From Lepidurus packardi (lineage: Eukaryota; Arthropoda; Branchiopoda; Notostraca; Triopsidae), in assembly GCA_023053545.1 (NCBI GenBank), contig JAKZAN010000002.1, positions 168,501 to 232,500 on the forward strand: a stretch of DNA of 64,000 nucleotides. Reading direction: 5' to 3'. The position numbers were made by a program, and so were the translations under genes. The notes under the pieces were generated by a model, which made no database searches, had not been told where the DNA came from, and was given only the letters and a program-made list of their open reading frames with translations. Shown in pieces: positions 38,169-51,895 of this stretch (positions are counted from its first letter, which is position 1; each line of letters begins with the position of its first letter).

Positions 38169-38508
38169 AGGAGTGGAAAGGAGTTCAAGGGCAGACGAAG
38201 ATTGGGAATTCTCAATGTCTCGCTCAACAAATTCACTGTAGAAATTGATGTATTCGCTGTGGTGGCAAACAGTAGCAAACCAGCTTCCCCAGCGAGTTAT
38301 TACAGGGACTGGTGGAAGCTGTACTGCGTCATTTGTTTGCTGCTGCATGAAGTTAATGTAGCTTTGTTTCCTTGAGGGGCAGTGCAACAGTATTTTCTTG
38401 AATGAAGCAACAAGCTTGTCTCCAGCTGGGAAATTACTACGGCAAGTTTCACCTACTAGGTTCAGTATGTGCGCATTGCAAGTAATATGCACTACAATTC
38501 GGTAGTAA
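38169..38508 (-). pseudogene. hAT (CGGBP1-like) transposase, downstream half
   Basis: Minus strand: LPNC, then one extra base, then VHITCNAHILNLVGE, CRSNFPAGDKLVASFKKILL, PVPVITRWGSWFATVCHHSE. This is the region after the second catalytic Asp of an hAT transposase of the CGG-binding-protein-like group. It is the continuation of 51606-51895; the 13.1-kb insertion at 38509 separates them. The far end is lost in a TTAGG-like tract. Confidence 0.8.
38501..38508. repeat. 8-bp target duplication, left (GGTAGTAA)
   Basis: GGTAGTAA, repeated at 51598-51605. Removing the insertion and one copy rejoins ...ETLKGLLPNC... of the host hAT gene. Confidence 0.9.
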
Positions 38509-38899
38509 CAGGGCCGTCTTATCGCATGGGCCAACTGGGCACTGGCCCAGGGCCCTGGCCAACTGGGCACTGACCCAATTTTATATTCAGTTACTACTAC
38601 ATAATTTTATTTAAAAGTGTGCACTTTTAGCATGCGTTTACTAAAAACACGTAAAAACGTGGAAGCTCATCATGATTTTTGCCTTATAGTACCGCTGTTG
38701 CTCAAAAGTTAGAGACCCTGCCGCAGTACGCAATTTGCAACCAAAATTTTCCCAGCGAGCCTGAGTGCCGCTGTAGGAGAGCATAAGAAACATCCCTATT
38801 GTTTTGATTCTCAAGCGTCTTCAAACGTCTTATTTTCACTGCTTTTGATCTGTTCTTTGATTGTCTTGATTTCACTGCTTAGCTTGTTTTTGCCATAAA

Positions 38900-39011
38900 A
38901 TGAAGCGTAATGTTTTAAGCGGGGCGCAGAAAAGGAAGAAAGCTGCAGAGGATAAAGAAAAGATTAACAAACTTCTTAAAATCACAACTTGGTTCAATTT
39001 AGGAGTGGCAG
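38900..39011 (+). CDS. ZMYM1-like hAT transposase gene, exon 1
   Basis: Starts ATGAAGCGTAATGTT: MKRNVLSGAQKRKKAAEDKE, a basic N-terminus typical of TTF-type zinc-finger/ZMYM1-like hAT proteins. It ends at a GT donor (GCAG|GTACAG). The intron runs to the TTTTCAG at 39866 and contains a MITE. The joined codon gives A-DTPSTSTSTSN. Confidence 0.72.
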
Positions 39012-39029
39012 GTACAGTATATGTAACAG

Positions 39030-39578
39030 TAAGGGCTGATTTCCACTGAGGTCCTAAGTGTCTTAAGGTGTGCTAAGGAGGAGTCGAGGAAGGGAAGGGA
39101 AATCAGTGGCCCTTTTCGGATATTAGCTAACTTTCATAGTTTCGTGGAAAGAAACGGCGCTTGTGGAGTTTACCCCCCACAAGCTAAACAGTAATCGCGG
39201 TTCATAGCATGCGAACCATTCATGGGGTGCTGACAAAAAACTAAAATTACATTTTCTTTTTCATTTCACAATAAGTCAATCACACACCAAGCCACCTAAC
39301 CCTCTGCGAAATACATTGTACTGAGTCACGGACGACAAGCTCTGCCCTATGAATGCCACGCATACTGTCAATTCCCGGGTTAGTATTTAGCATGTGGGTA
39401 AACTCCACAAGCACCAAAGAAACGGGCTAAATTTTCCCCTCCTTTCTAACGAAGCGTGTTTTTATCAAGTGTTTTTATAATTAGTTTGTCTCCCCTTTGC
39501 CTCTTGAATGACGACAAGTAGGCTCCTCGAGTTGCTAAGCTTAAGACACGTTAGGACCTCAGTGGAAATGGACCCTTA
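39030..39578. mobile_element. MITE inside the transposase intron
   Basis: 549 bp with inverted ends of 50-60 bp: TAAGGGCTGATTTCCACTGA at the left and its near-complement ending GGACCCTTA at the right. No coding capacity. Lies wholly inside the 855-bp intron, which without it would be ~300 bp. Flanking duplication unclear. Confidence 0.75.
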
Positions 39579-39866
39579 CAATATTGAGCGAAAAGCGCGG
39601 ATAGCTAAGTACATAAGAACCGTGTACTTAGATCAAGGACGTTATATTATGCTAGGTCTACACGGATTGTAGGGTTATCTATTGACTGTAATGTGTTCGA
39701 TCCAAGTCTTAGAATTCTGACGCACCTGGCAGGCGCGCAAGTTGCGAAAATCGAAGAATTTTCTTCGTGAGTTTTACTGTTAACAGAAACCCTACGATCG
39801 GTGTGAACCTTGCATTAGCTTTTTTTGCGATCCCTCGAATACGGATACCACTATTACTCTTTTCAG

Positions 39867-49267: not shown

Positions 49268-50430
49268 GGTCGTTTATACTGCTTCGTTTGTCGTCTGTTT
49301 TCCAAGACGGAAGCTTTTTTCACTAAAGCTGGTTTCAATGATTGGAAACACAACAATCTTATAACGGAGCATGGAAACGGAGATGAACATCGCAAGTGCA
49401 TGTTGACGTACTTGACACGGCATAAGGAAATTGGTACCTTAGACAGTTTATTACTCGAACAGCATCGTTCAGAGCAGGAATACTGGTGTAAGGTTTTGAC
49501 ACGTGTTGTTGCAGTTGTCCATTTTCTTGCATCTAGAGGTTTGCCTTTTCGCGGAGATAACCAAACTATAGGATCAGCAAAGAATGGGAATTACTTAGGC
49601 ATTTTGGAGCTCCTGAGTGAATTTGACCCTTTCTTGAAAGAGCATATCGAACTTCACGGAAATCGGGGAAAGGGGAAACCTTCTTATTTGTCAGCGAATA
49701 TTTGTGAGGAATTCATTGAACTAATTGGACAAGAGGTTCTTCGCGTTATTCTCGAGGAAATCAAATTATCAAGGTATTATTCAATTAGTGTAGATTCGAC
49801 TCCTGACATCTCGCACACCGACCAACTGACATTTACGATCAGGTACATTAAAGGATGCGAGCCAATTGAACGCTTTTTGAAATTCATCCCTATCTTTTCT
49901 CATGGAGAAAAGAATTTGGCAGACACAATTGTAGATTTCCTGAATGATAACAACATCCCACTCTCAAATTGCCGTGGCCAGTCGTATGACAATGCTTCTA
50001 ACATGTCTGGGCGTTATACAGGTTTACAGGCACGTATCAACCAACTCAATGAGTTCGTCATCTATGTTCCTTGTGCTGGGCATACCTTGAATTTGGTTGG
50101 TGTGAAAGCGGCAGAATCTTGCCTCCAGACCGTAACATTCTTCGATTTTGTTCGGCGAGTTTATACCTTTTTCTCCGCTTCGACTCATCGATGGAGTATT
50201 CTAACAACATCTTTAGGAAACTATCTTGCGGTTAAGCGCCTGTCTGACACAAGATGGTCGTCACATTTCGATGCCGTACATGCTCTGTATGTAGGTTTCG
50301 AAAAAATTAAGCATGCGCTAGACGCTTTGTCAGTCGACACTGAACAGGAAGTAAAAACAAGGCGAGAGGCAGGGGGATTGAGCAAAAGAATGGAGTACTT
50401 GGAAACGGTCTTTTTGACGGGAGGTGTTAA
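49268..50430 (+). pseudogene. ZMYM1-like hAT transposase gene, exon 2 continued (C-terminus missing)
   Basis: Starts GRLYCFVCRLFSKTEAFF, completing the TTF-type zinc finger (CFVC ... EHRKC), then LPFRGDNQTIGSAKNGNYLG, the first catalytic Asp in YYSISVDSTPDISHTDQLTF, the second in CRGQSYDNASNMSG, VPCAGHTLNLVG and SDTRWSSHFDAVHAL. Coding ends at about EYLETVFLTGG; the helical domain and the C-terminal dimerisation block with the catalytic Glu are absent. Inactive even without the retrotransposon insertions. Confidence 0.85.
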
Positions 50431-50440
50431 GACGGGGGTG

Positions 50441-50454
50441 CTAAGACGGCCCTG
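50441..50454 (-). repeat. Inverted copy of the composite hAT left end
   Basis: CTAAGACGGCCCTG is the complement of CAGGGCCGTCTTAG, matching the left end at 38509 over 13 bases. It could be the original right terminus of the ZMYM1-like element, but its flank does not match GGTAGTAA. Confidence 0.65.
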
Positions 50455-51547
50455 GCCACTGTTGCAGAGTTATTCAAATCTTTGAATAACTACATGTCGG
50501 GAAAACTGAACTGTTCATTTTGTGTTCGAATTTCTACGGATGGAGTAGCTGCTATGACCGGAAGGATTTCTGGCTTTACTACTCGGGTCAAAGAGGTCGC
50601 CCCTGAATGCGAGTCCACGCACTGTGTCATCCATCGAGAGATGTTGGCTAGTCGTAAAATTTCACCGTTTTGCAAAATGTAGTTAAGATTATCAATTACG
50701 TCAAAGCCAATGCCCTTAATTCTCGATTGTTCGCTCAGCTCTGTGGGGAGATGGATGCAGACTACACACGTCTACTCTTGCACACCGAAGTGAGATGACT
50801 TTTGAGAGGTAGGTCTATGACCTGAGTTTACGAGCTACGGGAGCCAATCCAGAGATTTCTTACAGAGAAAGATTCTCAGCTGGCGGAATATTTCAATGAA
50901 AGCGAATGGGTTGCGAAACTTGCCTACCTTGCCGACATTTTCAGCCTACTTAATGAGCTCAATGTTTCACTGCAGGGTAGGACGACAACCATGTTCAAAT
51001 CGGCAGATAAAGTGGCCGCATTTAAATCGAAACTTGAGTTATGGGGGCGCCGGGTTAGCATCGGGATCTTTGATATGTTCCAAACCTTAGCTGAGGTCAT
51101 GAAAGATTCTGAGCCGAGTCCTTCTTTCTCTCAGTTGGTGCGAGGTCATCTGTCTCATCTTTCGCAAGAATTTGAACGTTATTTCCCCGTGACAAAAGAT
51201 CCACGATCAGGGAAGGAATGGATCCGCGACCCGTTTATTAATAGGCCAGGTGAATCGGGCTTATCACTGCAAGAAGAGAGCCAGTTACTGGAACTTGCTA
51301 ATGATGGTGGGCTGAAAAGTCTATTTGCTACAAGTCCAGACCTCCATACATTCTGGATTAAAGTCAAAGTGGAGTATCCTCAAATTGCTACCAAAGCGCT
51401 GAAAAGTCTGCTCCCGTTTCCTTCGTCTTACCTTTGCGAATCAGGATTTTCTGCTGTGACAACCACAAAAACCAAGCAACGCAATAGGCTGGATTTCGCG
51501 AACACACTTCGAGTTTCTGTCTCCCATCACACCCAGGTGGGAGTGTT
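50455..51547 (+). pseudogene. ZBED5-like hAT transposase fragment
   Basis: Pieces in shifting frames: TVAELFKSLNNYMSGKLN, CVRISTDGVAAMTGRISGFT (catalytic Asp), HCVIHREMLASRK, then ELNVSLQGRTTTMFKSADKV, IGIFDMFQTLAEVMKDSE, EWIRDPFINRPGESG and SLLPFPSSYLCESGFSAVTT (dimerisation region with the family Glu), ending TLRVSVSHHTQ. It resembles ZBED5/Buster-type genes. Both ends lie within coding sequence, with no UTR or terminal repeat, which looks like a captured gene piece. At least two frame changes near 50680-50990. Confidence 0.8.
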
Positions 51548-51605
51548 TCTGGGTAGTAACTCTCCCTGGGTAGTAACCCCTGGGTAGTTTCTCCCTGGGT
51601 AGTAA
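51548..51605. repeat. GGGTAGTAAC micro-repeats and right target duplication
   Basis: GGTAGTAA occurs at 51552, 51569 and 51598, with a variant GGTAGTTT at 51583, separated by TCTCCCTG/CCCCTG. The last copy (51598-51605) adjoins host sequence and is the target duplication. Confidence 0.85.
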
Positions 51606-51895
51606 CCCCTTCAACGTTTCGTAGGCTTTCGTCATGTAAGTTGCATTGTCCGTGAGAAACGCACTCACATTTGCAAAATCTACTTTGTACTTGGTCAAGC
51701 ACTGTACATAGCATCTGAGACTGTCGTGCTGTTCACGGGCTCTAGGTTTACTATGTTGACGCAGAATACCTCTCAGGATGGCGAAGTTGATAACAATGTA
51801 GCTGATTTCAGTTGAATTTGTGGTATAAAAAGAATGTGAAGTACATATCGGTCTTGTACATCGCACGACTCGTCAGTTGCGATGGAGTAACTGAA
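51606..51895 (-). pseudogene. hAT (CGGBP1-like) transposase, upstream half
   Basis: Minus strand: FSYSIATDESCDVQDRYVLH (first catalytic Asp), AILRGILRQHSKPREQHDS-type block, VDFANVSAFLTDNATYMTKA (second Asp), ending ETLKGLLP at the insertion. Continues at 38508. A pyrimidine-rich stretch ending CAG directly upstream (minus strand) looks like a splice acceptor. Confidence 0.78.

What the first reader, a model, noticed from the sequence alone, without database searches (positions are those of the whole stretch)
38169..51895. Four-level nest resolved by exact target duplications
CGGBP1-like hAT gene < composite hAT unit (GGTAGTAA) < gypsy C (CCAG) < gypsy D (GTATG), with a MITE in the intron of the second level. 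At each level removing the insert restores coding or LTR sequence exactly, giving a full relative chronology in 13.7 kb.
Basis: seen in the sequence. Interest (0 to 1): 0.75.

Follow-up and report, generated by a model that had tools for sequence, protein, structure and literature searches.

The report
Nested transposons with a failed-excision scar
Four mobile elements sit one inside another in an animal genome, and the second carries a scar suggesting that it was cut at one end and patched with a stray piece of a different transposon; the nesting is ordinary, and the scar looks like an example of a known repair process.

Summary
The nest is real. A hAT-gene relic (about 38172-51887) carries a ZMYM1-like hAT at GGTAGTAA; that hAT carries LTR retrotransposon C (40244-49263, CCAG); C's 5' LTR carries LTR retrotransposon D (40317-45168, GTATG). 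The window's own 108.6-Mb genome supports the levels: an uninterrupted GGTAGTAA site in 5 of 5 host paralogues, a gap-free reading across the C site in 115 of 120 listed homologous proteins, and uninterrupted C LTRs at 11 other places. LTR differences: 2 of 178 (C), 0 of 221 (D).

Three parts of the interpretation fail. The "composite hAT unit" is probably not one mobile unit: the ZMYM1-like element ends at 50454, followed by a 1,093-bp internal fragment of another hAT and 49 bp of filler with two more target-site copies, one with 5 bp of host flank. I read this as failed excision repaired in place. The "MITE" is two nested inverted-repeat elements present in all 3 copies compared, so older than this insertion. 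Restoration is not exact: the host has one extra base, and the hAT lost its transposase end. Filler cannot be ordered relative to C and D.

The parts
38172..38500 (-). Host hAT-gene relic, left flank of the nest; joined at about 38172 to a TTAGG-like array. One extra base at 38493.
   Evidence: five paralogous loci; array junction shared with C86 (L005)
51606..51887 (-). Host hAT-gene relic, right flank; homology ends at 51887
38501..38508 (.). Target duplication GGTAGTAA, left copy
51598..51605 (.). Target duplication GGTAGTAA, right copy
38509..50454 (+). ZMYM1-like hAT from left terminus (CAGGGCCGTCTTA) to right terminus, interrupted by C; right subterminal part and transposase C-terminal part missing
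   Evidence: (DUF4371)
38556..38577 (+). Left-end scar: second copy of terminal bases (20 of 21 identical) in place of the native sequence (approximate end)
38900..39011 (+). Predicted exon 1 of the ZMYM1-like transposase (GT donor at 39012)
   Evidence: sequence; reading phase agrees with exon 2; splicing inferred
39029..39579 (.). Outer inverted-repeat (MITE-like) element in the predicted intron; no clear target duplication seen; older passenger
39156..39415 (.). Inner MITE with AAAGAAAC on both sides (39148-39155, 39416-39423); older passenger, repetitive in the genome
39867..40243 (+). Exon 2 of the ZMYM1-like transposase, part left of C
49268..50418 (+). Exon 2 of the ZMYM1-like transposase, part right of C; family match ends at 50418
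40240..40243 (.). Target duplication CCAG, left copy
49264..49267 (.). Target duplication CCAG, right copy
40244..49263 (+). LTR retrotransposon C (Ty3/gypsy-like domains: gag, protease, integrase; no reverse-transcriptase match); 5' LTR 40244-40316 plus 45169-45278, 3' LTR 49086-49263
40312..40316 (.). Target duplication GTATG, left copy
45169..45173 (.). Target duplication GTATG, right copy
40317..45168 (-). LTR retrotransposon D inside C's 5' LTR; LTRs 40317-40537 and 44948-45168 identical; 1,364-aa ORF 40607-44701
50419..50431 (+). Right-end scar: partial second copy of the terminal bases (14 of 16 identical; the aligned stretch reaches 50435)
50432..50454 (+). Right terminus of the ZMYM1-like hAT (22 of 23 identical to the C1 copy)
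50456..51548 (+). Captured internal fragment of a second hAT (ZBED5-like, name recalled); neither end of that element present
51549..51597 (+). 49-bp filler with two more GGTAGTAA (51552, 51569); 51562-51581 identical to 51591-51610

Best explanation
A stack of separate transposon insertions in which the second element was also broken and mis-repaired. A hAT-gene relic received a ZMYM1-like hAT that already carried two small inverted-repeat elements in its intron (8-bp duplication GGTAGTAA). At this site its right end was probably cut by hAT transposase, one base outside the element. The break was not resealed cleanly: repair synthesis copied bits of the adjacent junction (element end, target site, host flank) and joined in a 1.1-kb internal piece of an unrelated hAT. 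LTR retrotransposon C inserted into the transposase exon, and D into C's 5' LTR. Shown: the three insertions and their duplications; the order host < hAT < C < D; the fragment being internal to another hAT; the target-site copies in the filler. Inferred: that transposase made the break, that repair was by synthesis with template switching, and when this happened relative to C and D.
For: Uninterrupted host site in 5 of 5 paralogues. C1 copy of the ZMYM1-like family with both termini and an exact 8-bp duplication fixes the native right terminus at window 50454. Fragment 50456-51548 starts one base after that terminus and is continued on both sides by other sequence in its relatives, for example L009, whose element has its own termini and 8-bp duplication. 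Filler has GGTAGTAA twice and a 20-base exact repeat that takes in 5 bases of host flank. The fragment join was found only here (1 of 25 matches), as was the filler core (1 match with up to 2 mismatches). The C4 copy has also lost its right part and shows 22 bases of left flank repeated at the break. C site read gap-free in 115 of 120 listed homologues. C LTR uninterrupted at 11 other places. Published hAT behaviour: filler in Ds2 elements (PMC3260210, passages), end cutting with flank hairpins and copied footprints (PMC4763223 and PMC3499496, passages).
Against: Nothing shows that transposase rather than another agent made the break. The Markov control for the filler is lenient: at least one target-site copy arose in 4,205 and two in 33 of 200,000 sequences built from the filler's own steps. 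The insert does end in CCCTG, which fits the first 5 bases of the left terminus, as a composite unit would. No DNA copy with an uninterrupted C site was found. Two of 6 D-family pairs and one of 6 C-family units lack matching target repeats.
Confidence: 0.78

Rival explanations
1. One reading: a composite hAT (ZMYM1-like left end, captured piece of a second hAT, right end at 51597) was built elsewhere and transposed as one unit into GGTAGTAA.
For: Exact GGTAGTAA outside both ends; the insert begins CAGGG and ends CCCTG; filler-bearing hAT derivatives are known (PMC3260210, passages).
Against: A native right terminus already lies at 50454; the outer right end matches the left terminus in only 5 bases; the join was found once (1 of 25 matches); the filler holds target and host-flank letters of this very site.
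Confidence: 0.12
2. The second-hAT piece and filler entered by ordinary end joining at a break unrelated to transposase (replication fork collapse, physical breakage) beside the hAT end.
For: Short copied repeats and captured distant pieces are also general features of break repair (established knowledge, recalled).
Against: The join lies one base outside the right terminus, where a hAT transposase would cut, and a second copy (C4) is also broken on its right with flank letters repeated.
Confidence: 0.08
3. Assembly error: misjoined repeats produced the nest or the composite.
For: All parts are repeats in a genome of 344 contigs.
Against: Three sets of exact target duplications with lengths of 8, 4 and 5 are not expected from misjoins, and the window lies inside a 13.5-Mb contig. 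Reads could not be examined.
Confidence: 0.02

Closest known systems
Maize Ds2-type derivatives of the hAT element Ac, with filler DNA; abortive gap repair (Rubin and Levy 1997, recalled; seen only as a reference, paper not held)
   Same: A hAT copy with a damaged interior or end, short copied repeats and a piece of unrelated sequence (PMC3260210, passages).
   Different: Here most of the captured DNA lies outside the right terminus, next to the host, and the filler copies the target site; in Ds2 the filler lies between the ends.
hAT excision footprints (TcBuster, Hermes, Kat1)
   Same: Cutting at the element end and small flank-copied insertions (PMC3499496, PMC4763223, passages).
   Different: Here the element stayed in place and more than 1 kb was added on one side.
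Nested LTR retrotransposon insertions
   Same: C in a DNA transposon and D in C's LTR, each with short target duplications.
   Different: No difference in kind; the stack is short and well resolved.
CGGBP1-like hAT-derived proteins (PMC8097297, abstract and opening)
   Same: The host relic resembles this hAT group (name recalled; a paralogue ORF has a sub-threshold DUF659 match).
   Different: Multi-copy relic cut short on both sides, no sign of a kept gene; not tested against a CGGBP model.

Membership tests
hAT superfamily (second-level element) | 8-bp target duplication | tested here: met
   GGTAGTAA with 5 of 5 uninterrupted paralogues; GACATGGG at the C1 copy
hAT superfamily (second-level element) | Matching inverted termini | tested here: met
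   CAGGGCCGTCTTA at 38509 and, inverted, ending at 50454
hAT superfamily (second-level element) | hAT transposase with C-terminal dimerisation domain | tested here: inconclusive
   DUF4371 present; the C-terminal part is lost in this copy; many listed homologues have PF05699
Ty3/gypsy LTR retrotransposon (D) | Protease, RT, RNase H, integrase in that order; TG...CA LTRs; short target duplication | tested here: met
Ty3/gypsy LTR retrotransposon (C) | Same domain set including RT | tested here: not met
   gag, protease and integrase matches but no RT match in the four ORFs given; filed as an RT-lacking LTR element with gypsy-like domains, not as a complete gypsy
hAT abortive gap repair product | Filler with short copies of adjacent sequence at the element end | tested here: met
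hAT abortive gap repair product | Break made by the transposase | not testable with these tools
   position one base outside the terminus is suggestive only
Composite transposon moving as a unit | Same composite at more than one site | tested here: not met
   1 of 25 matches holds the join
CGGBP1-like hAT (host) | BED finger plus Hermes-type DNA-binding domain | tested here: inconclusive
   paralogue ORFs of L006: sub-threshold zf-C2H2_12 (18 of 27.3 bits) and DUF659 (26.2 of 34.7 bits)

The most novel reading that the evidence does not exclude
The ZMYM1-like hAT reached this lineage by horizontal transfer from a source that also reached ranid frogs (74% amino-acid identity to a Rana temporaria protein over the whole 507-aa query), and its copies here were disabled largely by their own failed excision repair: the three copies compared are all deletion derivatives, and two carry target- or flank-copied scars.
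Probability: 0.3. Interest if true: 0.45.

Novelty: new member of a known kind. Interest (0 to 1): 0.32.

Why it matters
It gives a clean ladder of insertions for relative dating in one genome. It also appears to record an unfinished hAT excision whose repair copied the target site and captured a kilobase of another transposon, a way in which chimeric-looking 'composite' elements can arise without ever moving as composites. The caution is general: an exact outer target duplication does not prove that everything inside it was inserted at once.

Tried and rejected
Organism: not identified. TTAGG repeats at the end of contig C3 fit an arthropod (recalled). A LINE protein search (31 hits, at most 29% identity) and a search with part of D's ORF (best listed RT-region identity 64%) gave no near-identical hit. 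Rfam: 0 matches at gathering scores in the window. No absolute ages: no rate is known for an unnamed organism.

Idea that the second-hAT piece inserted by itself: rejected, it lacks both ends of its element. Idea that the ZMYM1-like hAT inserted into that second hAT: rejected, because the host relic, not the second hAT, adjoins its left end. Idea that the left-end scar is a subfamily trait: rejected, because C4, C1, L084 and 8 of 8 sampled left ends have the native form; but those 8 all show one and the same 12-base flank, and L104 is the same place as L084, so they may be copies of one insertion rather than independent evidence.

Name labels: ZMYM1-like is supported by source names; CGGBP1-like and ZBED5-like are recalled names (no Pfam match at the cut-off).
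Full report
What was checked. The window lies in contig C2 (13.5 Mb) of a 108.6-Mb assembly of 344 contigs. 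TTAGG repeats lie at the end of contig C3, which fits an arthropod (recalled).

Level 1, host. The left flank 38190-38508 matches five other places at 80-95%. In all five (L002-L006) a query of joined flanks aligns through a single GGTAGTAA, and the two flanks at C16, C5 and C86 overlap by exactly 8 bases. The window copy has one base (38493) that all five lack, so removal does not restore the reading exactly. The relic is short. To the right its homology stops at 51887, while the four paralogues in which the spot was located (L002, L004, L005, L006; not L003) continue with similar sequence. To the left it adjoins, at about 38172, a TTAGG-like array that copy C86 (L005) shares along 727 aligned bases at 86.5%. 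C86 is thus the closest structural relative seen, and it has an uninterrupted site. A paralogue ORF has a sub-threshold Pfam DUF659 match (E 7.2e-6, 26.2 bits against a cut-off of 34.7); the name CGGBP1-like is recalled, with PMC8097297 (abstract and opening) as background.

Level 2, a hAT with a broken right end. 38509-39843 has relatives at C4 (L036) and C1 (L034/L037). The C1 copy is 2,420 bp with both termini and an exact 8-bp duplication GACATGGG. It fixes the native right terminus: its last 23 nt equal window 50432-50454 with one difference. Upstream the window copy leaves the family at 50418, whereas C1 and a C2 fragment (L033) continue with a common sequence. Between 50418 and the terminus are partly duplicated terminal bases (14 of 16 identical). 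The left end has a like scar: after 47 native bases a second copy of terminal bases (20 of 21 identical) stands in place of the native sequence seen in C4, C1, L084 and 8 of 8 sampled left ends. Those 8 share one flank and L104 is the L084 place, so they count as little more than one case.

What follows the terminus is not part of this hAT. 50456-51548 is an internal piece of another hAT; in L009 that element runs from CAGCGGTCCCCAACCT to its inverted copy (one difference), with GTCTAGAG on both sides. The piece differs from L008 by 11 substitutions and 15 gap columns over 1,093 aligned bases, and from L009 by 27 and 12. Then 49 bases of filler hold GGTAGTAA twice more, and 51562-51581 is identical to 51591-51610, which takes in the target site and five bases of host flank. 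In Markov sequences made from the filler's own steps, two copies arose in 33 of 200,000 and at least one in 4,205; this control is lenient, since the chain is built from the repeats themselves. The join of the two hATs was found once (1 of 25 matches), as was the filler core. Target-site and host-flank letters inside the insert are most simply explained if the filler was made at this site after the hAT had inserted.

A second copy is broken in a like way. In C4 the right part is missing and the break is followed by 22 bases repeated from the left flank. C1 has lost its middle but kept both ends. So the three copies compared are all deletion derivatives, two of them with target- or flank-copied scars. 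One search scored 40 of 87 candidates, so other copies may have been missed, with the right part of the exon, scored 3 of 3.

Passengers. The predicted intron holds an outer inverted-repeat element (39029-39579, 29-nt arms, 90% complementary) and an inner one (39156-39415, 20-nt arms, 95%), the inner flanked by AAAGAAAC. Both are present at the same place in the window, C4 and C1, with small differences: C4 lacks three bases beside the inner right end, and C1 has a longer C run. They entered before these copies separated and are older than this insertion, not a later level of the nest. For the outer element I saw no clear target duplication, and no match to its arms outside the three copies.

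Level 3, C. CCAG flanks 40244-49263. No uninterrupted DNA copy of this exon was found here: the C4 match ends at 40206 and C1 lacks the region. At protein level the reading across the site aligns without a gap, with at least 8 residues on each side, in 115 of the 120 listed homologues (120 of 1,649 hits were listed). C-family flanks: 5 of 6 units have exact 4-base repeats (4 independent); the C75 tandem array, whose left boundary I took from a partial LTR, does not. C has gag, protease and integrase matches but no reverse-transcriptase match in the four ORFs given.

Level 4, D. GTATG flanks 40317-45168 inside C's 5' LTR. C's LTR is uninterrupted at 11 other places besides its own 3' LTR (19 matches in all, several partial). 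D-family flanks: 4 of 6 pairs have exact 5-base repeats (3 independent); 2 do not. D's LTRs are identical over 221 bases, and ten LTR matches in the genome, its own two among them, tie at the top score (33 matches).

Chronology. Supported: passengers before the separation of the hAT copies; host before hAT; hAT before C; C before D; hAT before filler. Not resolved: filler and end scars relative to C and D. C's LTR difference (2 of 178) and the distance of the captured piece to L008 (11 of 1,093) are too close to order. Other C-family pairs show 0, 1, 5, 0 and 0 substitutions. The hAT body differs from C4 by 48 of 1,604 aligned bases and from C1 by 40 of 1,244.

Mechanism. hAT transposases cut at the element end and leave hairpins on the flank, and repair leaves small copied insertions (PMC4763223 and PMC3499496, passages). 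Maize Ds2 elements carry filler from elsewhere in the genome (PMC3260210, passages). A join one base outside the terminus, with target-site copies and an ectopic fragment, is best read as an unproductive cut at the right end followed by repair synthesis with template switching. Who made the cut is inferred.

Horizontal transfer lead. The best hit of the second-level transposase is a Rana temporaria protein, 74% over 100% of the query; named arthropod proteins in the listing reach at most 55% (Camponotus, 74% coverage; Diprion 54%, 91% coverage). In a FastTree of the query and the 120 listed hits the query sits in a five-member group with two Rana and two unnamed proteins (support 0.975; the grouping inside it is not supported, 0.209); the tree distance is 0.42 to Rana and 1.49, 1.69 and 1.82 to three named arthropods. 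Without frog DNA, names for the unnamed hits, a named host or a gene baseline this stays a lead.

Verdict. The part worth keeping is the repair scar that imitates a composite transposon.

Noticed in passing
38900-40243 and 49268-50418: Second-level transposase is closest to a Rana temporaria protein (74% over the whole query), far closer than to named arthropod proteins in the listing: a lead for horizontal transfer.
   Followed up: partly
L077, L078, L082, L083: A C-family element at C1 and in C75 has the same flanks in both places, and its 5' LTR is itself interrupted near its end (matches 1-155 and 150-179 lie apart).
   Followed up: no
L066, L067, L068 (C75): Three C-family LTRs in a row at exact 3,683-base spacing, which looks like a tandem LTR array.
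   Followed up: no
contig C1, near 3669173, 3676576 and 3683979; L097-L104: Left termini of the ZMYM1-like family repeat at exactly 7,403-base spacing, and the 8 sampled copies share one flank, so they look like tandem or segmental copies of one insertion.
   Followed up: partly
56173-58299: One ORF matches both a reverse transcriptase and a baculovirus F-type protein family (RVT_1 and Baculo_F): an LTR element with an envelope-like gene, apparently with an internal deletion.
   Followed up: no
37824-38171; L005 890-1490: Degenerate TTAGG-like arrays adjoin the host hAT relic here and in C86 but not in L002, L003 or L006 (L004 has one stray motif): an interstitial telomere-like array shared by two copies.
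   Followed up: partly
51888-52271: The host relic ends at a stretch that resembles part of 5S rRNA (recalled; no Rfam match at gathering score), followed by a long AT repeat. Part of this region (51893-51984) also matches L004 at 97%.
   Followed up: no
37378-37812: Partial Harbinger-type transposase (DDE_Tnp_4) just left of the nest.
   Followed up: no
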